Below are positions 4,488 to 21,611 of a stretch of 21,611 nucleotides of DNA, one piece after another. This DNA comes from a virus: the IMG/VR virus record IMGVR_UViG_3300025771_000231, positions 1 through 21,611 of that record; one strand, written 5' to 3'. Position numbers and translations under genes: made by a program. The notes below the pieces were generated by a model that made no database searches, was not told where the DNA came from, and was given only the letters and a program-made list of their open reading frames with translations. Positions within the stretch are counted from its first letter, which is position 1, and every line of letters starts with the position of its first letter.

Positions 4488-4756
4488 TGAACCCGGACGG
4501 TTGGGAGGGGTTGCAAACCGTAGACCCCGAAATAGCAGAAAAACAGCAAGTAGATAAAGATGACATTGATCGTCTTTATCTTCGCGTGTTCGCCAGCGAT
4601 GATGGGGCAAAGCTGCTCACCCATCTAAGGTCGCTGACGATTGAGCAGCCTAGCTGGTATCCCGGTGAGGACGCCAGTCACGGTTATGCTCGCGAAGGCC
4701 AGAATAGTCTGGTCAGGGAAATTGAGCGGCGCATGAAAAGAGCGAGATCACTATGA
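4487..4756 (+). CDS. Bbp19-like small head protein
   Basis: 89 residues. Two motifs fit the Bbp19-type phage domain: VFASDDGAKLLTHLR (residues 34-48) and YAREGQNSLVREIERRM (67-83). Related proteins sit between portal and scaffold or capsid in many podophages. The function is not settled. The start overlaps the portal stop (TAATG) with AAGGGA at 4474-4479, 7 bases upstream, and the end overlaps the scaffold start (ATGA), so it is wedged into a coupled portal-Bbp19-scaffold unit. No membrane segment. Confidence 0.8.
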   Translation: MNPDGWEGLQTVDPEIAEKQQVDKDDIDRLYLRVFASDDGAKLLTHLRSLTIEQPSWYPGEDASHGYAREGQNSLVREIERRMKRARSL

Positions 4757-5556
4757 ATGATACAGATGGACTGTTGGCCGAAGCCCAAGTTGAGGGCGAC
4801 GATAACCAGCAGAAGGCTGAAGAGACATCAATTCCACACCAATTGCCTGACAACGAGCCGTCACTTGATAGCGTAACCGTTGCCAAAGAAGGTGAGGAGA
4901 TAGAGCTTGAAAGGCCAGAATGGTATCCAGAAAAGTTTTGGAAGGACGACGACGGCCCGGATCTGGAAAATCTTGTTAAGTCGTATAATGAACTGCAAAA
5001 AAAGTTTAGTCAGGGAAAGCATAAAGCCCCTGAGAAATACGATACAGCAATTTTTGAAGAGGCTGGCATTGGTGACGATGACCCGCTTTATAGCGTTTAT
5101 AAAGATTGGGCAAAAGAAAATGGTGTTAGTCAAGCGGCCTTTGAGCAATTAGCTGGCACATTTATCGAAATGGCTAAAGGCGAAAGTCAGCAAGCCGAGA
5201 TCTCATACAAAGAGGAATACGAAAAGCTCGGCCCAAATGCTGACGTTGCAATCAAGTCAATGACTGACTGGGCGTCTAGCCTAGTTCGCAAAGGCGTTTG
5301 GTCTGATGCTGACTTTGAAGAGTTTAAAATTATGGGTGGCACCGCGCAGGGCTTACGCGCTTTGCAAAAGATCCGCTCATATTATGGCGATAAACCAGTG
5401 CCAATTGACGTGTCGCCAATGACCGACGCGCCATCTAAAGAAGAGCTAATGGCAATGGTTGGCAAGCCCGAATATCAAAGCGACCCAGCCTACCGGGCGA
5501 AGGTCGAAAAGATGTTTGAAAACGTCTATGGCAAGCAAGAATATAGTGCCATTTAA
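4753..5556 (+). CDS. Capsid scaffolding (assembly) protein, T7 gp9-like
   Basis: 267 residues, very acidic, with a low-complexity N-terminus (1-53). PEWYPEKFW (55-63), a helix LENLVKSYNELQKKF (71-85) and KAPEKYD (91-97) form a pattern common to scaffold proteins of marine podophages. The rest is predominantly helical and charged, and the C-terminus (about 228-267) carries KEELMAMVGKPEY and a basic/acidic helix that could bind the coat protein. Position between portal and capsid is the same as T7 gene 9. Scaffolds direct procapsid assembly and leave before maturation. Size is a little shorter than T7 gp9 (307). No catalytic protease motif is visible. Confidence 0.88.
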   Translation: MNDTDGLLAEAQVEGDDNQQKAEETSIPHQLPDNEPSLDSVTVAKEGEEIELERPEWYPEKFWKDDDGPDLENLVKSYNELQKKFSQGKHKAPEKYDTAIFEEAGIGDDDPLYSVYKDWAKENGVSQAAFEQLAGTFIEMAKGESQQAEISYKEEYEKLGPNADVAIKSMTDWASSLVRKGVWSDADFEEFKIMGGTAQGLRALQKIRSYYGDKPVPIDVSPMTDAPSKEELMAMVGKPEYQSDPAYRAKVEKMFENVYGKQEYSAI

Positions 5557-10164: not shown

Positions 10165-11906
10165 TGGCTAGGTCACTAGAATATAGGCCGCTTGGCGTTG
10201 GGATTGCATCGCTGCCCGGCGTTAACTTTGTTGCCACTGGAACGGCGCAAGCTAGGGTGGCAAGCACAATCGCGCAATCGCTTGACCAAATGTCGCGGTT
10301 TGCTTTCCAACAGTACGAGATACAAGCAAAAATCGAGGGTGCTGAATTTGGCGCAGCTAACGCGCCCAGCGTTGTGGATCTTATTAAAGCTGAGGACGCT
10401 GAGGCTAGAAAAGCATTGCTGCCCGGCAGCACTGAAACTGTGCGCGGCAGGGCAGAGCGCCAAGCGGCGTTAAACACTGTTGCGGCTAATCTTGAAATAA
10501 CAGCGCGTGATGCAATCAATCAAATAGCTGTTGAGGGTCATGTAAATTTTACAAATGTTGTTGATCTCCAAAGGCAGATTGACGGCGTTATTAATGGCTT
10601 TAGTGGCGCAATGACCGATGTTGACCCAGCGACAGGCGCTAAACTGCGCCTTGGATTGTCAACCATTGGCAATACCGCTTACACAACCCACGTCAAGATG
10701 ATGGCTGAAAAAGCCGAAAAGCAAACTCAATATATTGCCGAAAAAGGCGTAGATCAAATTATTGACCAGATAGGGCCAATGCTTATTACTAGGGCAGCGA
10801 AAAGCCCAGATGAGATGTTCGGTATTATTACCGCTGAAAAGAAAAAGCTGTTTGCTCTTGCAGACGCAACTGAAGACGCGGCGTTTTTAACAAGCTCTAT
10901 TGCAAACTTTGACAAGGCTGTTAGTGACGCAAAAATAAACGCTGTGGCCGAATATGTTTTGCGTGATCCTCTTAAGAATAGCCAAGAGATTTTAGATACA
11001 TTAAACACCGGCAAGATGAAAATTACAGATAACGCCGTTGCAAATATTGCTATATCTCTTAACCCGGAAGAGCGTCTTGAAGCTTTTAAAAGGGCAAACA
11101 CAGCGGTTAACGAGATATATGCAAGAGAGGCGCAGCGAGAAGCCAAAATTGAGCGTGAAAGAAAAAATCAAGCAAGAGATCTAGAGACTGAGCTTGCTGG
11201 GTTTTTAATTGACGGTGGCGTTGATGATGATGTTGTCCGAGCAAAGATAGTTGAGTTGCGCGGGTTAGACCCGGAAAAGGCGTCAAAATATAATGATGCG
11301 TATTTTGTTAAAGGCGGCAATGACGACTTAGATACAATCTTAATCCTAGACCAAAAGGGTATGGATAAATTTCTGACTGTTGAAGATGTTTTGGACGCAA
11401 GAGCAAATAGAAAAATTACGCTAGAGAGCGCGAGAAAATATTTAACTGTAATAAAATCTAACAGAGACACCTTTAGAACGCAGGCTATTAACAAGATTAA
11501 AAGTGCGCTTGGCGTTCCTGATATTGGAATGTTGACGCTTGATGCGTCAGGCGAAAGAAGCGAGGCCGCAAAATTTGTGATGCAGGGTATGGTTGAATTA
11601 GACGCGGCTATTTTGCAAAACCCAAATCTAGATCGGATCAAATGGGCTGATGGCTTTATTGAGCGCGGCAACGTAAAAAAGCGTTTGAAGGATGAGCTAT
11701 CGTCAGCGCTAAGTGTTGTTAGCATAATTAAGCGCGAGCAACTAGGTATGGGCAGCGCGAAGGTAGACACAGACGAAGACCTTGACGCAATCATATTAAG
11801 ATCATCAGGCGTCTTGGAAGATAGCCCAAGGCATCAGGATAACCACAACAAATTGTTAGATGCAATTAGCATTGTTAAACGCAGCCGGGCGGCACTTGAA
11901 CAATGA
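10164..11906 (+). CDS. Internal virion protein, T7 gp15-like
   Basis: 580 residues, shorter than T7 gp15 (747). It starts with a short basic region and a SLPGVNFVATGTAQARV segment, then is almost wholly helical with many Lys, Glu and Ala, as in the core proteins that build the periplasmic tunnel. It sits second in the gp14-gp15-gp16 order. Recognisable repeats, signal peptides and transmembrane segments are absent. Antisense ORFs across 10754-11146 and 11168-11794 are shadows of its codon bias. The call rests on order and composition more than on motifs. Confidence 0.75.
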   Translation: MARSLEYRPLGVGIASLPGVNFVATGTAQARVASTIAQSLDQMSRFAFQQYEIQAKIEGAEFGAANAPSVVDLIKAEDAEARKALLPGSTETVRGRAERQAALNTVAANLEITARDAINQIAVEGHVNFTNVVDLQRQIDGVINGFSGAMTDVDPATGAKLRLGLSTIGNTAYTTHVKMMAEKAEKQTQYIAEKGVDQIIDQIGPMLITRAAKSPDEMFGIITAEKKKLFALADATEDAAFLTSSIANFDKAVSDAKINAVAEYVLRDPLKNSQEILDTLNTGKMKITDNAVANIAISLNPEERLEAFKRANTAVNEIYAREAQREAKIERERKNQARDLETELAGFLIDGGVDDDVVRAKIVELRGLDPEKASKYNDAYFVKGGNDDLDTILILDQKGMDKFLTVEDVLDARANRKITLESARKYLTVIKSNRDTFRTQAINKIKSALGVPDIGMLTLDASGERSEAAKFVMQGMVELDAAILQNPNLDRIKWADGFIERGNVKKRLKDELSSALSVVSIIKREQLGMGSAKVDTDEDLDAIILRSSGVLEDSPRHQDNHNKLLDAISIVKRSRAALEQ

Positions 11907-14584
11907 CAGATATAGCACAAGAAATGATGAATACTATGATAGCGGCTGACAGCGGTGGCAAGCTAGAGACTGTTCGCGACGACGGTGGCAATTATCGTAT
12001 GCGCCGTGTCTATGACAAGGCTATGTCTATGGAGAAAACGCAGGCGCTTGGCGTTGGTGACGTTTTTGGTGGGGGCGCAAGGCCAGATATTTATTCGCTA
12101 GCTCAAGCATCCGACGCGCCAATTACTGAGGCTGAGGTTAGCGGTACGCAGCTTGGCGCTTTTGTGGGCGTTCCCTCTGCTGTAGTAACAGGGGTGCCAG
12201 ATCTTTTTGCTTTGGGCCTTGGCGGCTTAAAAGCAGCTTTGGCAGAAAAGGGTCAGGGGTGGGATGAGTTCCAAAAAGGATGGAGCGCCATATCCGGCAC
12301 ACTTGGCTCTGAAAAAGCCGGTGAATTGTTTGATGGGTTTGTTGAGGGCTTGGATATTAGCCCTGAGTTTAAGCAAAGTTTAAAGCAGGGATACCTAGCT
12401 GGCGAGTTTGCGTCGATGGGGCTTGTCGCACCACAAGCCGCTAAGGCCGGGGCTGGCGCTGTTGCTGATTATGCAGCAGGCGCACCAGCCCACCTAGAAG
12501 ACGCCAAGAGCGGCGTCACGCTTGGTATGAATGTAGACCCTACCCAGATCGTTGATGAGGCTATTGTGGGCGCTCAGAAGCCGATGGGTAAAAAGCCGCA
12601 AGAAACACAAGCGGCAAAGTCAGCCGCGCCGTCTATTGGGGATTTAGAGGCTGCGACAATCGCAGAAAAAGCAACGAACACCGAACAAGCAACCGCAGCA
12701 GCAGCAGAGGCTGAAAGAGTTATAAATCGTTTCCCAGAAAGCGACGGTTGGGTAAAGCCGCAAGTTATGACTGAAAGCAAAACCCCACCATTTGAAGTTA
12801 AAAAAGACGGCACAATTGATGTTAACTTTAAGAAAATACCTTACGCGTATCATATCCCGCCAGAAGGATTAACCTTAGATCAACATAAAACAAATCTTGT
12901 CGGGAAAATGGTTGATGATGTGCAGGCGTTGGTCAACCGGGCAAAGTCAGGCGATAAAGCGGCAAAAGCTATTTTGAAAGAAGCAAGTTGGTACCGCAAT
13001 ATGCGCACAAGGTTGCGGCAAGAATATGGCGGTTTAGGAGATATGTTTGCTGACTTGCTTGGAGCGACATCCGCAAACACCGGCGTTCAAATAAATTATG
13101 AAAACGCACTAACCATAATGCGTAAATTTTCGCGCGGCGATTATGACAAAGCCATTAAACTTTACCAAGACAGAATTGATGCTGGGTTAAGTGTGTCTGG
13201 CAAAGATATAACAGCATTGCATAAAGACCCTAAAAACCCATTCCACTTAATTACTAAAGACAATGAAAAATTATTTGGCGCAAACAGCCCCGCCGCTACA
13301 TCAGCTTTGCTTGATATGTTTAGGCAAGTGAAAGGCGGTAAAGCGCCAAAAACTGTGAACTTTACCGGCAACTTAATCGGGTATGGTTTTGATGCAACAA
13401 TTGATGTTTGGGCGGCCAGATATCTTAGAGATGCGGCTGGGTTACCACGCATTCCGACCGTAGCCGAGCAAGGTGTAACAGGAACACACGGCGCAAAAAG
13501 CACACTGGATGCGCCGGTTGTTGGCGGTGAATTTGGTTTTGGGCAACAAGTTTTTGCAGACGCTCGCGATGCGATAAATCAATTAGGCGTAATTAAAAAT
13601 TATGACGAAAAACTTGGTGACCTCGGCGCTGATGATTTGCAAGCCGTTATTTGGTTTGCTGAAAAAGAAAAATGGACTAACAAGGGCTGGACATCAAAGG
13701 CTGGTGAGGGCGGGTCTTTTGATTATGAAGCTGGTCTAGCCGGGTCTCCAGATCCAGAGCGTGTAAAAGAATTACGGTCTATTATTGGGTCAATAAACAC
13801 AACAGCGGCACAGAAAAAACAAGCCCGCGAAGAATTAAAAACACTTGCTGGCTCTGCCGAAAGATACAGCGCCGGGGTCTCAATGGAACGTCCGGAGCAG
13901 GTGCCTACCAACGTGCAACAGGCGCAATTAGCTGAAGAGATTACGGCACCATTAAAAGCAGATGACACTGTGCTTGGTTATCAGGCGAACAATAGCCTTG
14001 GCGAATTTGCCGGGGAAACTGAACGCGCATTAAATTATGAGATTGTTGCGCGTAGCAATTTTAACCCGGAGCCAGCAACAAAAGCCCTTGTTGAGGCTGG
14101 GCGCAAATACGATCAGGACGCTGTGTTTATGTCGAAAGTGGTTAAAGCCGGTACGCCAAACGCACGGCCCGGCATCGAGGTTTATTTTGTTAAAAAACAA
14201 GATGAGGCGTTTACTCAAAAAATTACAGAGATATTGCGTAAATATGGAATTGATGGCTTTACGTTTGTAACCGACAACAGGGTTGCAGATAAGCCAGCGG
14301 CTCAAATAGAAACTGGCGCAAAAACTGCTGGCCTTACTGGTGTAAGAATGCAATATGTGCCTGAGTTTGATGATGCGTTTGATGCAACAAATGCAGATCA
14401 AATTTACAAGCAAAAAGCAAAACAGTATCGTAAAGCAATGCGTGACATATTAAAGCTACAGGATATTAGTTATGCGGATGTTACTTACTATGATACAAAG
14501 GTTTACAAAAACACCGACAGACCGGGTGCGGAATGGATAAACGGAGGCATTAGTTATGATGAGTACCTTGCAGGAAATCCTTGA
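11903..14584 (+). CDS. Large virion protein with DUF7178-like / glycosylase-like signature (gp16 region)
   Basis: 893 residues, at the place of T7 gp16. The N-terminal third is Gly/Ala-rich and helical (about 60-190), then an Ala/Glu linker (about 220-275). A central region holds LGATSANTG (386-394), KTVNFTGNLIG (483-493), TIDVWAAR (499-506, D501) and LGDLGADDLQAVIWFAEKEK (571-590). These resemble, from memory, a phage domain (DUF7178 type) with the pattern K-x-x-x-F-x-x-N-l ... D-x-W-x-x-R seen in helix-hairpin-helix glycosylase-like proteins. The C-terminal part (about 690-840) includes RPGIEVYFV and GIDGFTFVTDNR, of a type met in polyvalent phage proteins. No SLT lytic transglycosylase motif is seen. 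ATGA overlap with the gp15-like gene. Confidence 0.7.
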   Translation: MTDIAQEMMNTMIAADSGGKLETVRDDGGNYRMRRVYDKAMSMEKTQALGVGDVFGGGARPDIYSLAQASDAPITEAEVSGTQLGAFVGVPSAVVTGVPDLFALGLGGLKAALAEKGQGWDEFQKGWSAISGTLGSEKAGELFDGFVEGLDISPEFKQSLKQGYLAGEFASMGLVAPQAAKAGAGAVADYAAGAPAHLEDAKSGVTLGMNVDPTQIVDEAIVGAQKPMGKKPQETQAAKSAAPSIGDLEAATIAEKATNTEQATAAAAEAERVINRFPESDGWVKPQVMTESKTPPFEVKKDGTIDVNFKKIPYAYHIPPEGLTLDQHKTNLVGKMVDDVQALVNRAKSGDKAAKAILKEASWYRNMRTRLRQEYGGLGDMFADLLGATSANTGVQINYENALTIMRKFSRGDYDKAIKLYQDRIDAGLSVSGKDITALHKDPKNPFHLITKDNEKLFGANSPAATSALLDMFRQVKGGKAPKTVNFTGNLIGYGFDATIDVWAARYLRDAAGLPRIPTVAEQGVTGTHGAKSTLDAPVVGGEFGFGQQVFADARDAINQLGVIKNYDEKLGDLGADDLQAVIWFAEKEKWTNKGWTSKAGEGGSFDYEAGLAGSPDPERVKELRSIIGSINTTAAQKKQAREELKTLAGSAERYSAGVSMERPEQVPTNVQQAQLAEEITAPLKADDTVLGYQANNSLGEFAGETERALNYEIVARSNFNPEPATKALVEAGRKYDQDAVFMSKVVKAGTPNARPGIEVYFVKKQDEAFTQKITEILRKYGIDGFTFVTDNRVADKPAAQIETGAKTAGLTGVRMQYVPEFDDAFDATNADQIYKQKAKQYRKAMRDILKLQDISYADVTYYDTKVYKNTDRPGAEWINGGISYDEYLAGNP
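14543..14547 (+). promoter_or_regulatory. Ribosome binding site for the 52-residue ORF
   Basis: GGAGG lies 8 bases before ATG 14556 and inside the coding end of the 893-residue protein. It supports translation of a gene that overlaps that end by 29 bases. Confidence 0.6.
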
Positions 14585-14714
14585 AGAGGAACTAGCTGAC
14601 GGCGCAACAGATGATGATCCTGTTGTGCAACAATTGCGGCGGCAGATTGCCGCTGAAGAAAACGGAAAAACGTCAGAGGAATTGTATATCACAGGCTCTG
14701 TGAAAAAAGGATAA
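14556..14714 (+). CDS. Small acidic protein overlapping the 893-residue virion protein
   Basis: 52 residues, MMSTLQEILEEELADG then DDDPVVQQLRRQIAAEENG, ending in SVKKG. It begins 29 bases inside the end of the preceding gene in a different frame, and ends 3 bases before the next start. GGAGG 8 bases upstream and the complete filling of the 133-base gap between the two large genes are the evidence. Either of the two consecutive ATGs (14556 and 14559) could be used. It is acidic with an amphipathic helix; there is no membrane segment. It may be a small partner or chaperone of the ejection proteins, which is inference from position only. Confidence 0.72.
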   Translation: MMSTLQEILEEELADGATDDDPVVQQLRRQIAAEENGKTSEELYITGSVKKG

Positions 14715-14717
14715 ACT

Positions 14718-17585
14718 ATGGCGCGTGATCTCAGCGAAGAAATGGATGAAATGGCAAAGGCTCAACAGATGGAAGCAATTTCATTTGCTGCGCCTGATGA
14801 GGTCACGACCGAGCAGCAGGATTTAGCGCCTGTCACGCCAGAAGAGATTATACAGCTTAACAACCCAGTATCATTGCCAGATGAGCCGGTGCAAGTTGCT
14901 AGCTTATTTGACGATGCGGTTACTGGCGCGGCTGCATTTATTAAGCGCAGAACTGCTGAGGCTGAAAAGCGTGTCACTGCAAAGATCCCAGAAAAAGATG
15001 TGCAAGTAATCGGCGGCAGCACAGTTATACGTCAAGCCAACCAAGAAGATATTGACGCGCTTGAGGGCGTTCTGAATATCACTTTTGAAAAGGGCTTGAA
15101 CCTTCCAGCAATTATGAATGCGTCTGGCGATTTTGACCTTGCCGGTTATATGGCGAATGTCAAAGAGCTAAACAAAGATTTGTTTGAACGCGCTCGACGC
15201 GGCACGATAAATTATAACTCAATGCTAGAACTGGCAGAGCAGCAAGGCGCAGATCAGGTGCTGAAGAAATGGCTCACACGTCAGCCCGGCAGGGGCGATG
15301 TGGCTGAGGACGTTCTGGCCGGTTTGATATTGGCGCGAGATCTAACGCGCAAAACGCAAGAGGCTTTTGAGTTCGCTGCTGATGCAACTGATCCAGAGAT
15401 GCGCCGAAAATTATTTGCTGATGCCGCCCAGTACCTCACAATGGAATTTGCGATGTACTCAAACCTATCAGGCGCTGTTAGTGAAAGCGCCAGATTGATG
15501 CGGGCGATGCAGCAAGCGCAAACAGTGGGCATTGATTTGCGCCGCGCTGATGAGCTGCTAAACATATTAGAAAACGAAGGCGTTAATATTGAGCATCTTG
15601 GCAGCTTGTATTTGTCACTGCCAAACCCAGCCGCAAAAACAAAGCTAGTTAGAGGCATTATGCAACGTGGCGGCGATGTCCTGACTGAGATATTTATCAA
15701 TTCAATTTTGTCGAACCCAGTCACACACGCCGTAAACATTGCTGGCAACTCAGTGTTTATGATCAGCAAGGGCGTTGAAGAAATGGTTGCCGGGGCTATT
15801 GGCAGCACTGGCGTAAATAGAATTAGGCCCGGCGGCGTTGACCCAAGAGATAGAGCCTATGCGCGTGATGGCCTGATTAGGCTTGAAACAATTGGCACTA
15901 GCTTTATTGACGCACTTGTTGTATCAGGTAAGGCTTTTATAAAAGAAGAGGCTAGTGACTTTACTAGCAAAATTGATGTTAAGAATAAACGCGCTATTGG
16001 CGACACTGGTGACGTGGTCGAGATCTACAAGCAGATCAAAGACGGCAATGTTATGGCTGGGGCTTTAAACACTTTTGGAACCTACATTCGTATGTCTGGC
16101 CGGTTTATGCTGGCAGAGGATGAGTTTTTTAAAGCAATGGCCTACCGCACGTCAATTAAGCAGCAAGCCCGCCAGCGCCAGTATGATTTTTACGACCGGC
16201 TGGTGGAAGGCGGCACACCTAAATCCGAGGCGTCAGACTTGGCTGCTGCTGAGTACGTTAGAGCGCTTGAAAACCCAGACCAAAAAGCAATGGAAACAGC
16301 GCGTGATGCAGCAAAAGTATTGACATTCCAAGGCGATTTGGGCGGCTTTGCTGGTGAGATGCAGGGCTTTATGTCGCATCCCGCTGTTAAATTGTTTGGT
16401 GCGCCGTTCTTTAAAACGCCGGTCAATGTTATGAACGCCGTTGCAGAAAGATCACCCTTAGCGCTTTTATACCCCGATATCCGCAGGTCATTACTTGCTG
16501 GTGGCCGTGAAGCCGACACAGCCTTAGCAAAGATTATGACTGGGTCTGCTCTAATGGTTGGCTTTGCGTGGATGGGCGGCGGGCTGCACACGCCTGACAA
16601 CAACATAATTATTATGGGGGCTGGCCCGACAAACCCCCAAGCGCGTCAGGCTATGGAGCGCCTTCGCCTCTATCCACACACTGTTAATTTTAAAATGGAT
16701 GATGGCACATATCGCGGCGTAACTTACTCGCGCCTCGACCCGCTATCAGGCTTGCTGGCTATGTCGGCTGACTATGCGTATTACGCGCAGTATGAGGATG
16801 ATAACGGCACACTAGAAAATTTAACAACAGCCGCCGCGCTTGGTTTGTATAACTACGCAATGCAGCAGCCATTCTTGGATGGCGTGTCAGACCTAGCCCG
16901 GATCTTAAATAACGCAGATCCTAAGTTGGCTTTTGAAGAGGCGCAGTCGTTCTTTGCTGAAAGAGCGACCACAGCCGGGCTGCAAATTATCCCAACTGTA
17001 TCAGCTTTGGGGGCTGGCGTTGAGCGTGTTATGGATCCAACGGCATCAAGCACACTGTTGCCGGGCGAGGGGTTCTTTGGTGAAGACCCAACATTGCTCA
17101 ACCCTGCGGCTAGGGGCTTTTACACAGCAATCCAAAAAGCCAAGGCGCGGCATCCTATGTTTAGTGCAGATGTACCGCCATCCCTAAATTTATGGGGCGA
17201 GGTTCGCACACAAGGTAACGGCGCTGGCTGGGAAATGTGGTCGCCTATCAGGATTATGGACGCAAAATATGAAGGGCTTGACCGGGAAATGATGGAGCTT
17301 GGTGATGGCTTGTCGATGCCGAGCAAGCGCATCAGTGGTGTTATTCTTAATAACGAGCAATACAATTCGTTGATCTACGCGCTGAACCAGCCAGATCCTT
17401 CATTGCCTATGTTAAAAGACGCGCTGTCAGATTTGTTGTATTCGCCAATTTATGACCAGCTAGAAACTAAAGAGGACAAGCTAGACGCGATGAAAGCAAT
17501 TTATAACAAGTATTCCAGCGCGGCTCGCAAGATCATAATGGTTCAATACCCAGAACTGCGAGAGCGGGTAGCGGAAAATCAGTAA
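14718..17585 (+). CDS. Large internal virion (DNA ejection) protein, T7 gp16-like
   Basis: 955 residues, smaller than T7 gp16 (1318). Acidic N-terminus (1-60), then helical core. The motif IFINSILSNPVTHAVNIAGN (325-344) matches a segment widely present in C-terminal parts of large podophage ejection proteins, and a hydrophobic stretch IMTGSALMVGFAWMGGGL (606-623) could enter a membrane during ejection. The PTNPQARQAMERL and KMDDGTYRGVTYSRLDPLSGLL segments that follow are also typical. No N-terminal transglycosylase (E-S-x-x-x-P-x-A and GLMQ) is visible. It ends the gp14-gp16 block; 36 bases separate it from the tail fibre gene. The reverse ORF at 15281-15808 is a shadow. Confidence 0.82.
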   Translation: MARDLSEEMDEMAKAQQMEAISFAAPDEVTTEQQDLAPVTPEEIIQLNNPVSLPDEPVQVASLFDDAVTGAAAFIKRRTAEAEKRVTAKIPEKDVQVIGGSTVIRQANQEDIDALEGVLNITFEKGLNLPAIMNASGDFDLAGYMANVKELNKDLFERARRGTINYNSMLELAEQQGADQVLKKWLTRQPGRGDVAEDVLAGLILARDLTRKTQEAFEFAADATDPEMRRKLFADAAQYLTMEFAMYSNLSGAVSESARLMRAMQQAQTVGIDLRRADELLNILENEGVNIEHLGSLYLSLPNPAAKTKLVRGIMQRGGDVLTEIFINSILSNPVTHAVNIAGNSVFMISKGVEEMVAGAIGSTGVNRIRPGGVDPRDRAYARDGLIRLETIGTSFIDALVVSGKAFIKEEASDFTSKIDVKNKRAIGDTGDVVEIYKQIKDGNVMAGALNTFGTYIRMSGRFMLAEDEFFKAMAYRTSIKQQARQRQYDFYDRLVEGGTPKSEASDLAAAEYVRALENPDQKAMETARDAAKVLTFQGDLGGFAGEMQGFMSHPAVKLFGAPFFKTPVNVMNAVAERSPLALLYPDIRRSLLAGGREADTALAKIMTGSALMVGFAWMGGGLHTPDNNIIIMGAGPTNPQARQAMERLRLYPHTVNFKMDDGTYRGVTYSRLDPLSGLLAMSADYAYYAQYEDDNGTLENLTTAAALGLYNYAMQQPFLDGVSDLARILNNADPKLAFEEAQSFFAERATTAGLQIIPTVSALGAGVERVMDPTASSTLLPGEGFFGEDPTLLNPAARGFYTAIQKAKARHPMFSADVPPSLNLWGEVRTQGNGAGWEMWSPIRIMDAKYEGLDREMMELGDGLSMPSKRISGVILNNEQYNSLIYALNQPDPSLPMLKDALSDLLYSPIYDQLETKEDKLDAMKAIYNKYSSAARKIIMVQYPELRERVAENQ

Positions 17586-17621
17586 ATGGTGTATTATTCA
17601 CGGCAGAATGTGAGGCATTAA

Positions 17622-19775
17622 ATGGCAGATTACAATATCAACGCAATTACACGACGTGTCGTGTTTACCGGGTCAGCGGGTGTTGGGCCGTATGCCTTTT
17701 CGTTTGAGGTGCTTGATCAAAACGATGTAGCCGTTTATTTCAACACCACATCGCTGACACTAACAACAGACTACACCGTGACCATCAACGCCAATGGCAC
17801 TGGATCAGTCACCCTTGTAACTGGGTCGGGTGTTCCGACAACACCAACGGCATCAGACACTGTTATTATTATCGGTGCCAGAGACATTGAGCGCGTCACA
17901 GACTTTGTTACAGCCGGTGACTTGCTTGCGTCTAGCCTTAATGAACAGCTTGATGCTTTGACAATTATTAACCAGCAGTTAGCCGAAGAAGGTCAGCGCT
18001 CAATGCGAGCGCCTGTTTATGACCCGGCACTGGTGGCTGACGGCGGCACACTTGACATGACCTTGCCCGCCAAGGCTGATCGCGTTGACGCGGTTCTGGC
18101 ATTTGACACTGATGGCAACCCGACCAAAGGGCCAACGGTGTCTGGAATTACAACTGTGACAGACTTGGCCGCTGACATTGCTACACTGGCTGACATTGAA
18201 GATGGCACTGTAGCCACTGACGCTATTAGCAATACAGCCGCTATTGCTTCTGATGTGACGACTGTTGGCGGTATTGCGTCTAACGTAACCACAGTAGCAG
18301 GGATTTCTGCTGACGTTACTACTGTTGCTAATAATGTTTCAGGCGTTAATTCGTTTGCTCAAAAGTATCGCATTGGAGCATCAGACCCAACAACAAGCCT
18401 TGATGAAGGTGATTTGTTTTACAATACCACATCAGACGAATTAAAGGTTTACAACGGAACGGCTTGGGAAACAGGAGTGCAAGGTGCTTCTGGATTATTG
18501 TCTTTAACTGGCGGCACGATGACAGGAAACATTGCTTTTTCTGGAAGTCAAACCTTTGATGGTCGTGATCTTTCGGCAGACGGTACTAAATTGGACGGTA
18601 TCGAAAGCAATGCGACTGCCGATCAAACTGGTGCAGAAATTAAAGCTCTCTATGAAACAGAAGCTAATGCTTTTACCGATGCACAATTTACCAAACTGGC
18701 CGGAATTGAAACGTCAGCAACAGCAGACCAAACAGCATCAGAAATTCGTGCATTGGTTGAAAGTGCAAGTGATAGCAACGTGTTCACTGATGCTGACCAT
18801 ACTAAGCTAAACGGCATTGCTACTGGGGCGACAGTTTACAGCGATAACAATGTTGACGCTCATTTAAACACATCAACAGCGTCAGCAAGTGAAGTTCTTA
18901 GTTGGAATGGGTCTGACTATGACTGGATTAGCTCTGGAACTAAACTTTTTGACGAAAGTTATGATGGTACTTCAACACTTCCATCCGCAACAGGTACAAA
19001 TTCTGTCGCCGTTGGGGTTGAGGCAGAAGCCGATAGTTTACAAGCATCAGCTTTTGGGTTTGGGGCATTAGCAAAAGGTAGTTATTCTTTAGCCCTTGGT
19101 ACATCTTATGCTGGTGGCGCAAACAGCGTTGCAATAGGAATTGGAGATAATAACGCGGCTTGGGGGGCGGAGGACACTGCACAATACGGTATCGCTATTG
19201 GTTGGCGAGCTTATAGTAAAGCTTATAATAGTATTTCGATTGGTAGCGACTCAAGGGCATCTGGAAATAATAGCATCTCCCTAGGAACAAGTGCAGACGC
19301 ACAAAAGAGTGCATCTGTCGCAATTGGTCATTCAGCAGATGCTGATGTTGTTGGAAAGTTTGCTTATTCTAATCGTTCTAACACTTCATCTAATCGTGCT
19401 CAAGGTGGTTATTATATTTTAGACAAAACTACCACTGACGCAACACCTACTCTCATCCCCAACGCTCCTTCAGTGCTGTTAAATTCTGCGACAAGTTTCT
19501 CTGGTACAATTATCGCTAGAGAAAGCGCGGCGGCTGGTAGCGATTATGCTAGTTGGGAAATTAAAGGCGCAATGTTGAAAAATGGTGCAGGAACTTGTGT
19601 TCTAGGCAACGGCATTGTTAATAAAATTTACGCAACATCAGGTGCGTCTACTTGGGCAGTTTCTCTTTCGGCGGATGCTTATGGGTCAAATTTAAAAATA
19701 CAGGTTACTGGACAAGCCAGCACTAACATACTCTGGGTTGCAACCGTTAACACATCGGAGGTTACATACGCGTAA
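17622..19775 (+). CDS. Tail fibre protein with T7 gp17-like N-terminus and YadA-head-like repeats
   Basis: 717 residues. Residues 1-135 match the T7 gp17 N-terminal attachment domain (RRVVFTGSAGVGPYAFSFEV, DYTVTINANGTGSVTLV, IGARDIERVTDF, SLNEQLDALTIINQQLAEE), which anchors the fibre to the gatekeeper/nozzle. A Thr/Ala/Asp-rich rod follows (about 165-245), then GDLFYNTTSDELKVYNGTAWE, KLDGIE/KLAGIE repeats (312-406), an SWNGSDYDW segment and eight S-x-A-x-G or S-I-S-x-G units (461-575) like the YadA head. The end (about 600-717) is a small beta domain, AGSDYASWEIKGAML... The YadA-like part probably forms a trimeric beta-roll. GTGAGG is present just upstream of the ATG. Stop overlaps the next start (TAATG). 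Confidence 0.88.
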   Translation: MADYNINAITRRVVFTGSAGVGPYAFSFEVLDQNDVAVYFNTTSLTLTTDYTVTINANGTGSVTLVTGSGVPTTPTASDTVIIIGARDIERVTDFVTAGDLLASSLNEQLDALTIINQQLAEEGQRSMRAPVYDPALVADGGTLDMTLPAKADRVDAVLAFDTDGNPTKGPTVSGITTVTDLAADIATLADIEDGTVATDAISNTAAIASDVTTVGGIASNVTTVAGISADVTTVANNVSGVNSFAQKYRIGASDPTTSLDEGDLFYNTTSDELKVYNGTAWETGVQGASGLLSLTGGTMTGNIAFSGSQTFDGRDLSADGTKLDGIESNATADQTGAEIKALYETEANAFTDAQFTKLAGIETSATADQTASEIRALVESASDSNVFTDADHTKLNGIATGATVYSDNNVDAHLNTSTASASEVLSWNGSDYDWISSGTKLFDESYDGTSTLPSATGTNSVAVGVEAEADSLQASAFGFGALAKGSYSLALGTSYAGGANSVAIGIGDNNAAWGAEDTAQYGIAIGWRAYSKAYNSISIGSDSRASGNNSISLGTSADAQKSASVAIGHSADADVVGKFAYSNRSNTSSNRAQGGYYILDKTTTDATPTLIPNAPSVLLNSATSFSGTIIARESAAAGSDYASWEIKGAMLKNGAGTCVLGNGIVNKIYATSGASTWAVSLSADAYGSNLKIQVTGQASTNILWVATVNTSEVTYA
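18555..18840 (+). repeat. KLDGIE-type repeat region, copy in fibre gene 1
   Basis: Encodes FDGRDLSADGTKLDGIESNA, then ADQTGAEIKALYE, FTDAQFTKLAGIE, ADQTASEIRALVE and FTDADHTKLNGIATGAT: a roughly 30-residue unit repeated with decay. A clearly related block lies at 20078-20362 in the next gene. Confidence 0.85.
19002..19346 (+). repeat. YadA-head-like 14-16-residue repeats (eight units)
   Basis: Units begin SVAVG, ASAFG, SLALG, SVAIG, GIAIG, SISIG, SISLG and SVAIG. The pattern small-hydrophobic-A/S-hydrophobic-G is that of the left-handed trimeric beta-roll of bacterial trimeric adhesin heads. Confidence 0.75.
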
Positions 19776-21025
19776 TGGGAAAAATTGAACTAGACCACAC
19801 AGGCTCCGGCAGCGGTGTTACGTTAAGCTCTGACGGTACTAACTTATTATTAGATGGCTCTGCTATTGGCGGTGCTGGTGGCGGCGGTGATTTGCTGGCT
19901 GCCAACAATTTATCTGATTTAGATAATGCAGCAACAGCAAGAACCAATTTAGGACTAGGCACTGCGGCAACAACCGCAGCTTCGGCCTACGCCACGGCGG
20001 CTCAAGGAGCAACGGCTGATGCTGCGTTGCCACGCACTGGCGGTGCAATGACTGGTGCTATTACTACAAACAGCACTTTTGATGGTCGTGATGTGGCTAC
20101 AGATGGTGCCAAGCTCGATGGCATAGAAGCCGGAGCTACTGCTGACCAAACTGGCGCAGAAATCAAGACTGCTTATGAAGCAGAAGCAAATGCGTTTACA
20201 GATGCACAGTTTACCAAACTAGCTGGCATTGAGGCTGGAGCGACTGCTGATCAAAGTGATGCTGAAATCAAAACCGCTTATGAAAATAACAGCAACACTA
20301 ACGCCTTTACAGATGCAGACCATACAAAGCTCGATGGCATTGCAGCAGGCGCAAATAACTATGTCCACCCAAACCACACTGGCGAAGTCACCAGCACAGC
20401 CGATGGCGCAACGGTTATTGCTGATAATGTTGTTGATGAAGCTAATCTCAAAGTATCTAATGCCCCAACCAATGGTTACTTTTTATCAGCGCAATCTGGT
20501 GCGGCTGGTGGTTTAACGTGGGCTGCTGTATCTGGCGGCGGCGGTGCTTGGAATTTAATCAGCACAACAACAGTTACAAGCACTGTAAGCACAGTGGATT
20601 TTACATCAATCGGTTCATATAATAAATATGTTCTGAAATGGGATTGCACGATGAACGCCACTGCCATTGTAAAAATACAGATTTATGACAATGGCACTCT
20701 TGTAACGTCAAGCGATTATGTAATGCTTCGCGGTGCGTTTGCTTCATACTTGGCGGTTCAAACAACCTTTTCTGGAATACTCACAAGTGCTGGATTAAAC
20801 AAACAAATTGGTCAGCTAGAAATCAGCGCAGTAGAACCTCGATTGCCTTTTAAAATGGAGACTGCTGGCATTTCAGGGACAGGCGACAATGGCGAAAGAA
20901 CTTTCACGGCGGGCGCATTGAAATCGACATATTCATTGACTTCTTTTACGGGTCTAAGGTTTGGAACCACTGGTAGCAATAATATTGATACTGGTCGATT
21001 TTCTTTGTACGGCTTGAGCCAGTAG
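19775..21025 (+). CDS. Second tail-fibre/receptor-binding protein
   Basis: 416 residues. There is no T7 gp17-type anchor; it opens with MGKIELDHTGSGSGVTLSSD and a Gly-rich linker, then the phage-fibre motif NLSDLDNAATARTNLGLG (46-63) and GGAMTG, and the KLDGIE repeats (102-196) shared with fibre 1. After NYVHPNHTGEVTS (195-207) and an Asn/Ala-rich strand it ends in a distinct C-terminal domain (about 255-416) opening with AWNLISTTTVTSTV and closing with NIDTGRFSLYGLSQ, as in other phage receptor-binding tips. It may attach to fibre 1 or be a distal tip subunit. Start overlaps the previous stop (TAATG). Its receptor is unknown. Confidence 0.85.
   Translation: MGKIELDHTGSGSGVTLSSDGTNLLLDGSAIGGAGGGGDLLAANNLSDLDNAATARTNLGLGTAATTAASAYATAAQGATADAALPRTGGAMTGAITTNSTFDGRDVATDGAKLDGIEAGATADQTGAEIKTAYEAEANAFTDAQFTKLAGIEAGATADQSDAEIKTAYENNSNTNAFTDADHTKLDGIAAGANNYVHPNHTGEVTSTADGATVIADNVVDEANLKVSNAPTNGYFLSAQSGAAGGLTWAAVSGGGGAWNLISTTTVTSTVSTVDFTSIGSYNKYVLKWDCTMNATAIVKIQIYDNGTLVTSSDYVMLRGAFASYLAVQTTFSGILTSAGLNKQIGQLEISAVEPRLPFKMETAGISGTGDNGERTFTAGALKSTYSLTSFTGLRFGTTGSNNIDTGRFSLYGLSQ
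20078..20362 (+). repeat. KLDGIE-type repeat region, copy in fibre gene 2
   Basis: Encodes FDGRDVATDGAKLDGIEAGA, then ADQTGAEIKTAYE, FTDAQFTKLAGIEAGATADQ, AEIKTAYENN, and FTDADHTKLDGIAAGAN. It is similar in order and at the DNA level to 18555-18840, with long identical runs such as GATGGTCGTGAT, so the two genes share homology that recombination could use. Confidence 0.85.
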
Positions 21026-21035
21026 GGGTTTTGAT

Positions 21036-21302
21036 ATGAATAAAATGGTTAATGGCGTTCTTGTTGAGATGACCGATGCAGAAATTGCAACGGCAAATGC
21101 TGAACGAGATGATTACATAAACAATCTGTTGCCAATTGATGTTCGTAACCAGCGTGACAGGTTACTTGCTGAGACAGACTGGATGGCTTTGAGTGATGTT
21201 ACTATGTCTAATGCTTGGACTGCCTATCGACAAGCATTGCGTGATATTCCAGCACAAGCTGGGTTTCCTTTTAGCGTAACTTGGCCGACTAAGCCGGAGT
21301 AA
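21036..21302 (+). CDS. Tail-fibre assembly chaperone-like protein
   Basis: 88 residues. The segment VRNQRDRLLAETDWMALSDV (36-55) followed by WTAYRQALRDIPAQAGFP (61-78) and VTWPTKPE is the recurring C-terminal motif of phage tail-assembly chaperone proteins (APC type, by memory PF16778). It sits immediately after the fibre genes, as these chaperones usually do. AGGGG at 21024-21028 lies 7 bases before the ATG. It would help fold or attach the fibres and is not expected in the virion. The motif is so typical that the domain is quite sure; the fibre it serves is inferred from position. Confidence 0.85.
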   Translation: MNKMVNGVLVEMTDAEIATANAERDDYINNLLPIDVRNQRDRLLAETDWMALSDVTMSNAWTAYRQALRDIPAQAGFPFSVTWPTKPE

Positions 21303-21306
21303 AACT

Positions 21307-21483
21307 ATGAACGAAGAAAACAAAGTCATTCTGGATGTTGCTGCTGGCACCGGCACGTTTGCGGCCTATATGGCTATGGTGCCGGATTTTGTGGCTTTGT
21401 TTACCGGGATTTGGGTCTTGATACGCATCATTGAAACCGATAGCGTCAAAGTCATAATCAAAAAGCTACAAGGTCGTGTTTAA
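21307..21483 (+). CDS. Putative class II holin (58 residues)
   Basis: 58 residues. A hydrophobic stretch from residue 7 to 43 (VILDVAAGTGTFAAYMAMV then PDFVALFTGIWVLIRIIE) is broken by a Pro-Asp turn, giving two short membrane helices, and a basic tail follows (VKVIIKKLQGRV). Size, two-helix layout and position right after the tail-fibre genes match T7 gp17.5. The start is 4 bases after the previous stop, with no clear Shine-Dalgarno, so it probably relies on coupling. No endolysin is seen in the window. It could also be another small membrane protein; function as a holin is inferred. Confidence 0.7.
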   Translation: MNEENKVILDVAAGTGTFAAYMAMVPDFVALFTGIWVLIRIIETDSVKVIIKKLQGRV

Positions 21484-21611
21484 AGCAATCGTACTTGCTT
21501 GCTCTTTAAGCGCCCCACAAAACTGCATTGAGCTACATGATTTTCGCGGGCCTTGGCCGTCCTATGAGGCTTGTGTCGAGCGAGTGTATGAGATGGCAGA
21601 GGACGTTGGTA
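21476..21611 (+). CDS. Small Cys-containing protein with hydrophobic N-terminus (3' end cut by window)
   Basis: GTG 21476 opens a frame that stays open to the window end (45 residues). The N-terminus MFKAIVLACSLSA is hydrophobic and could be a short export signal; then comes CIELHDFRGPWPSYEACVER with a pair of Cys and a YEMAEDVG end. It resembles a family of short exported proteins with conserved Cys and 'D-x-R-G-P-x-x-x-Y/E-x-C' that I remember from marine phages and bacteria. It overlaps the holin stop by 8 bases. A start upstream is not possible beyond 21458 (TAA at 21455-21457). Being next to a holin, a spanin or lysis role is possible but not shown. Confidence 0.55.
   Translation, partial: MFKAIVLACSLSAPQNCIELHDFRGPWPSYEACVERVYEMAEDVG

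What the first reader, a model, noticed from the sequence alone, without database searches (positions are those of the whole stretch)
19002..19346. YadA-head-like beta-roll repeats in a T7-type tail fibre
Eight short units with S/A-x-A/S-x-G signatures, the pattern of bacterial trimeric autotransporter adhesin heads, lie in the distal half of a fibre with a T7 gp17 anchor. A trimeric left-handed beta-roll shaft or head would be an adhesin-derived part in a podophage fibre and may determine receptor contact.
Basis: partly seen in the sequence, partly recalled or inferred. Interest (0 to 1): 0.55.

Follow-up and report, generated by a model that had tools for sequence, protein, structure and literature searches.

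The report
YadA-type head in podophage tail fibre
A marine short-tailed phage's tail fibre really does contain the beta-roll head found in bacterial adhesins such as YadA, which was already reported for such phages; the newer point is that the head sits on a phage-only end domain inherited as one block with the start of the next fibre gene.

Summary
Trimerisation could not be tested.

The anchor is podophage-type but does not match T7 gp17's Pfam family.

YadA-type heads in marine podophage fibres are in print (PMC3909814), so the head itself is not new.

New, as far as I searched: after the roll comes a ~135-aa "cap" without a Pfam match, encoded by 395 viral contigs. Its predicted fold resembles phage tail proteins, best T4 gp9 (Z 11.7). 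Heads vary while caps stay conserved. Cap, TAATG overlap and the first ~33 codons of the next fibre gene form one conserved ~400-bp block (461 of 465 pairs). All 70 contigs found by that N-terminus alone carry the cap just upstream.

I propose, unproven, that the cap docks the next fibre.

The parts
17622..19775 (+). fibre 1, 717 aa
   Evidence: ORF; PHROG tail fibre families; tail-protein neighbours and Phage_T7_Capsid scaffold at 4753-5556
17622..18110 (+). N-terminal virion anchor (residues 1-163), podophage-type, not the Pfam T7 gp17 family
18579..18977 (+). shaft repeat region (residues 320-452), shared with fibre 2 and cyanophage fibres
   Evidence: phrog_21412; P-SCSP1u fibre 8i4m E 2.9e-10; 69.5% DNA identity of 18552-18820 to 20075-20343
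18984..19412 (+).
   Evidence: Pfam PF05658, profile, AlphaFold2, structure comparison
19485..19766 (+). C-terminal beta-sandwich cap (residues 622-715; conserved module from about 19371)
   Evidence: alignment A2, AlphaFold2, T4 gp9 Z 11.7 and other phage tail proteins; no Pfam family matched by the window's copy
19491..19885 (+). conserved junction block: 3' part of the cap, TAATG stop/start overlap, first ~33-38 codons of fibre 2
   Evidence: in the ten window pairs printed, 68-73% DNA identity from -281/-272 to +101..+119 around base 19772
19775..21025 (+). fibre 2, 416 aa; N-terminus 19775-19873 is of the MGK..DHTGSG type; its own C-terminus is neither head nor cap
21036..21302 (+). tail assembly chaperone, PF16778 Phage_tail_APC
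   Evidence: E 7.2e-23

Best explanation
This is a modular tail fibre of a T7-like podophage, most probably a homotrimer: virion anchor, repetitive shaft, a YadA-type parallel beta-roll head of about 8-10 turns, and a phage-specific C-terminal beta-sandwich cap. Shown: the repeat family, the predicted roll and cap folds, the nearly fixed head+cap pairing, the free variation of heads under conserved caps, and the co-conserved cap / next-gene N-terminus. Inferred: the head's exposed sides touch the host surface, and the cap is a constant trimer-closing part that may also hold the next fibre protein.
For: Head: (51 of 56 relatives hit YadA_head). Cap; in the cap-only scan 120 of 124 nonredundant cap ORFs carry heads (122 counting a looser motif). 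Head identity stays about 44-47% whatever the cap identity (rho 0.02, 1,540 pairs). Modularity: among 44 distinct fibre ends on anchors 74-100% identical to this one, one (the window's own) has head+cap; L119 shares the anchor at 97% aa but then diverges; L003 has an 86% anchor and an internal virion protein only 23% identical, yet its DNA is identical from window 18232 to 21561. Receptor role, from print: a YadA-domain cyanophage structural protein gained mutations when the phage was grown on poorer hosts (PMC6224464, passages), and the YadA end of a pelagiphage fibre under-recruits metagenome reads (PMC3909814).
Against: No trimer was predicted, no host is known and no receptor test exists. 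Sequence variety in the head could reflect weak constraint on a solenoid surface rather than receptor selection. The loci were chosen by patterns that included cap peptides, which inflates the absolute cap identity, though not its lack of correlation with head identity. L003 and L001 could be assembly chimeras.
Confidence: 0.78

Rival explanations
1. The roll is only a stiff spacer; the distal cap is the receptor-binding tip, as in T7 gp17 (recalled).
For: The cap is at the C-terminus, where T7-type fibres bind, and its fold resembles C-terminal domains of phage fibres and tailspikes (Kp9 gp42 Z 10.2, Fri1 gp49 Z 9.0).
Against: The cap is the conserved part in relatives on many backbones (cap/head comparison; 16 N-terminal clusters), the reverse of what a specificity tip usually shows; cap subtype follows the next gene.
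Confidence: 0.3
2. The cap and the next gene's N-terminus are conserved together only because they are neighbours: a recombination landing pad that lets heads and fibre-2 bodies be swapped, with no protein contact.
For: The block is contiguous DNA with sharp edges (461 of 465 pairs); 15 of 407 pairs have at least 90% identity at fourfold sites in the cap although heads differ; L004/L017 share a 98.3% block of 412 nt amid DNA that does not align collinearly.
Against: Median fourfold-site identity in the cap is only 0.63 with 89% aa identity, so most of the conservation is protein-level constraint; the block ends at domain boundaries on both sides; in the pattern scan the N-terminus is never seen without a cap before it (70 of 70 contigs).
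Confidence: 0.45
3. The cap is a folding or trimerisation chaperone domain, removed or inert in the mature fibre.
For: C-terminal position and constancy; intramolecular chaperone domains of phage receptor-binding proteins are known (PMC10579305, abstract).
Against: No protease or S74-type family is detected; a separate tail assembly chaperone lies downstream.
Confidence: 0.3

Closest known systems
Pelagiphage T7-like tail fibre with C-terminal YadA domain (Mizuno et al. 2014, PMC3909814, Fig. 3C)
   Same: Podophage fibre, repeats then a YadA-like domain towards the C-terminus; variable end (section 12 read)
   Different: They report a T7-type Pfam domain at the N-terminus; this anchor does not match PF03906. 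I saw no mention of the cap or of the next-gene junction in that section.
Heads of trimeric autotransporter adhesins (BpaC 7o23, BoaA 3s6l, YadA 1p9h)
   Same: Repeat family, predicted fold and repeat length
   Different: None of the outer-membrane export parts of these adhesins matched; the head sits between a virion anchor and a phage cap.
C-terminal beta-sandwich of T4 gp9 and of Klebsiella and Acinetobacter phage fibres and spikes
   Same: Predicted fold of the cap (Z 11.7, 10.2, 9.7, 9.0, 8.7)
   Different: Sequence identity only 5-11% in those alignments; the profile search finds no solved relative at E<0.03.
YadA-domain structural proteins of cyanomyoviruses (S-TIM4, S-SZBM1)
   Same: YadA domain in a virion protein; in S-SZBM1 found by mass spectrometry (PMC9146016, PMC6224464; passages)
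   Different: Other phage type (T4-like); cap not checked there.
Methylophilales phage MEP301
   Same: Closest isolate: portal 67% identical, fibre anchor 58%; short tail in electron microscopy (PMC8024684, passages)
   Different: Its fibre shows no YadA head in Pfam.

Membership tests
YadA-type head repeat (Pfam PF05658) | Profile match above the curated cut-off | tested here: met
   32.2 bits against 25; 4 places in the record
YadA-type head repeat (Pfam PF05658) | Parallel beta-roll, one turn per ~14 residues | tested here: met
   Predicted model only: EE/EEE per turn, Z 21.5 over 134 residues to BpaC
YadA-type head repeat (Pfam PF05658) | Homotrimer | not testable with these tools
   Only single chains can be predicted here
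Trimeric autotransporter adhesin (whole protein) | C-terminal outer-membrane anchor and other known adhesin domains | tested here: not met
   YadA_head is the only Pfam family in the 717 aa at E<=1
T7 gp17 tail fibre | N-terminal PF03906 | tested here: not met
   No match at E<=1; positive control T7 gp17 E 2.6e-74; hhalign 0.8%. A distant common origin is not excluded
T7 gp17 tail fibre | C-terminal gp37_trimer and gp37_C | tested here: not met
   Absent; present in T7 gp17
Podophage fibre/tailspike N-terminal anchor | Sequence relation to virion-anchoring N-termini | tested here: met
   phrog_1640 E 2e-11 and matched by 24 of 24 anchor rows; 28lx E 8e-6, 9efk E 1e-4, both at their N-termini
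T4 gp9-like C-terminal beta-sandwich | Same fold | tested here: inconclusive
   Predicted cap: Z 11.7, rmsd 2.8, 113 residues, 5% identity; Foldseek E 0.0099, best hit Kp9 gp42 E 7e-4. Fold similarity without sequence evidence of kinship

The most novel reading that the evidence does not exclude
Marine phages build jointed or branched fibres from interchangeable YadA-head proteins joined by a connector code: each protein's C-terminal cap specifically holds the N-terminal ~33 residues of the product of the next gene. Head sequences are then free to vary or be swapped while cap/N-terminus pairs are inherited as one block.
Probability: 0.4. Interest if true: 0.75.

Novelty: new variant of a known kind. 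Interest (0 to 1): 0.5.

Why it matters
It gives a concrete structure for host-recognition parts that under-recruit in marine viromes, and separates the constant part (cap plus next N-terminus) from the variable part (head). If the docking reading holds, the order and make-up of fibres in uncultured marine phages could be read from sequence, and the head would be the segment to assay for host specificity.

Tried and rejected
T7 gp17 membership of the anchor: rejected on Pfam and hhalign. The two weak pairwise stretches (hhalign 23-54 to 19-53, E 0.074; BLASTP 90-125 to 83-114, E 0.29) are collinear, so a very distant link is possible; no structure was predicted for the anchor because both AlphaFold jobs went to head+cap and to the cap alone.

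Bacterial origin of the cap: the genome scan gave 2 loci. L057 is phage-like DNA in a bacterial MAG by my reading of its ORFs; L058 was not read. Heads of bacterial plasmid adhesins match at up to about 42% in the rows listed, which does not show the direction of transfer.

Cap families: PHROG 5449 'virion structural protein' matches 19 of 47 cap rows (best E 2.7e-6) but not the window's, so 'no family at all' would be too strong. Cap profile against PDB: best E 0.036, triosephosphate isomerase, taken as chance. In the first structure comparison the cap was barely tested, so it was predicted alone. Listings of lectin, TNF-like and capsid folds at Z under 6 were set aside.

Isolates: tblastn of the window's head+cap found 1 weak record and of a relative 2 of 50,697 phage records; this is BLAST sensitivity only. 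Paper searches (PMC open licences only) listed no paper whose listing showed the cap or the junction block; most listed papers were not opened.

Biases and dropped rows. In one search, 127 nonredundant cap ORFs were used; 11 had no next start and 14 fell in 'other' (at least 8 of these look like the end-of-chain type missed by my pattern), leaving 102; the classes were drawn up. Left edges of the ungapped profile are affected by head length differences; (gapped) replaces it. The four cap ORFs without an HMM head include two that show the motif. The DNA pattern is exact and misses other serine codons.

Full report
What was checked. The window is a 21,611-base virus record with podophage morphogenesis genes: portal/head-tail connector PF12236, T7-type capsid assembly protein PF05396 at 4753-5556, capsid PF19821, a tail protein matching phrog_376 and an internal virion protein. 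The closest isolate by portal is Methylophilales phage MEP301 (67% over 93%), which has a short tail (PMC8024684, passages). The finding lies in the 717-aa fibre gene 17622-19775.

The repeats are real. The core pattern occurs 9 times (strict form 7) in residues 451-580, against maxima of 7 and 3 in 10,000 shuffles. A two-unit profile from other phages scores 50.6 bits against a maximum of 11.4 in shuffles. Pfam YadA_head is above its cut-off. 51 of 56 aligned sequences (the window among them) hit it. The family profile finds solved adhesin heads: BpaC 6.7e-25, YadA 2.1e-14, CbpF 2.2e-12, BoaA 3.1e-12.

Fold. AlphaFold2 on 56 aligned sequences gives pLDDT 86.6, with about ten short turns over residues 455-597 and then a sandwich of long strands at 622-715; the linker around residues 601-620 is weak (pLDDT 57-58). 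The roll matches adhesin heads at Z 21.5 (BpaC, 134 residues, 2.3 A), 20.3 (BoaA) and 19.4 (YadA). The pTM of 0.63 says the placing of roll against cap is uncertain. A trimer could not be modelled.

The anchor. The anchor family (24 sequences) matches N-termini of other phage tail proteins (phrog_1640; 28lx, 9efk). It is common in marine viral contigs (443) and found in 1 of 50,697 phage records by tblastn.

The cap. The 135 residues after the roll form a conserved domain. The window's copy has no Pfam or PHROG match; 19 of 47 aligned caps hit phrog_5449 'virion structural protein'. A scan for it found 395 viral contigs, against 2 contigs in the genome collection. Predicted alone (pLDDT 81), its seven best structural matches are all phage tail proteins, led by T4 gp9 (Z 11.7) and Klebsiella phage Kp9 fibre gp42 (Z 10.2). 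In the 80 loci kept from the cap-only scan, 120 of 124 nonredundant cap ORFs with at least 150 residues upstream carry head repeats. Cap ORFs with a complete start (119) fall in 16 N-terminal clusters, so head+cap rides on many different bases; 57 of 80 loci carry two to five such genes.

Variable head, constant cap. Over 1,540 pairs, head identity does not follow cap identity (rho 0.02); pairs with at least 95% identical caps have heads 47% identical, like all others. Among 31 close relatives (window included) the median is 44% for heads and 91% for caps. The absolute cap figure is inflated by how loci were found; the lack of correlation is not.

Exchange. 74 of 88 anchor-bearing ORFs are complete at the 3' end and give 45 distinct ends in 19 families; one of the 44 on closely related anchors is the head+cap end. 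L119 has the same anchor (97% aa) and then a different fibre. L003 has an anchor like that of L127 (90-100% DNA per 50 bases), then switches to DNA identical to the window from base 18232 to 21561, although its internal virion protein is only 23% identical. This looks like a recent exchange of the whole distal fibre plus fibre 2; an assembly chimera is not excluded.

The junction. In 461 of 465 pairs of 31 loci a collinear conserved block spans the fibre stop codon, with median edges at -315 and +109 bases: the cap, the TAATG overlap, and the first ~33-36 codons of the next fibre gene (31 of 31 next genes start MGK). The window shows it too (68-73% DNA in the ten pairs printed). Fourfold-site identity in the cap (median 0.63) points mainly to protein-level constraint, with 15 of 407 pairs at 0.9 or more as candidates for recent exchange. 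Cap subtype goes with the N-terminal type of the following gene: the nearest cap below 95% identity has the same next-gene class in 98 of 102 cases, against 39 of 51 for the gene's own N-terminus. As a separate test I searched all viral contigs for the DHTGSG-type N-terminus alone: 70 contigs, 48 nonredundant. All 64 with at least 400 nt upstream have the cap there, and so do the 6 shorter ones; among 332 other ORF starts in the same loci, 57 do.

How it most likely works. Shown: repeat family, predicted folds, modularity, co-conservation. Inferred: a trimeric roll displays variable side surfaces to the host, the constant cap closes the trimer, and it may hold fibre 2. The last step is the most novel one; simple linkage of neighbours at a recombination site remains a full rival.

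Known or new. A YadA domain in a marine podophage fibre was reported in 2014 (PMC3909814, section 12 read), and YadA-domain proteins are known in cyanophages and other phages (PMC9146016, PMC6224464, PMC7029224, PMC3728262; passages). Sharing of fibre modules between distant marine phages is also in print (PMC10579305, abstract). So the head is a new member of a known kind; the head+cap+next-N-terminus arrangement is a variant that I did not find described in searches.

Noticed in passing
window 19775-21025 and 17622-19775: Fibre 1 and fibre 2 share a shaft-repeat stretch at 69.5% DNA identity (18552-18820 and 20075-20343), a possible site of exchange within the genome.
   Followed up: partly
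L001 against window 12591-21611: All 251 mismatches lie at or before 13952; the 7.66 kb after it is identical, and upstream of 12591 the records do not align without gaps: another sharp mosaic border or a strain-level assembly switch.
   Followed up: partly
alignment A1, around window 19125-19175: Relatives share a 'NNTSSYGATG' insert in the roll (Tyr, Gly, Ala nearly invariant); the window has NNAAWGAE there. It may be a phage-specific turn or side loop.
   Followed up: no
L045, L048 and other loci: Up to five genes per contig end in the same kind of cap, most with their own head.
   Followed up: partly
L057 (MAG Porticoccaceae contig NYWV01000005.1): A contig in a bacterial MAG encodes a 1,020-aa fibre with several head blocks and the cap among phage-like genes: prophage or binning error.
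   Followed up: partly
window 11903-14584: 893-aa protein without a Pfam or PADLOC match; PHROGs not searched; its relative in L001 is 84% identical.
   Followed up: no
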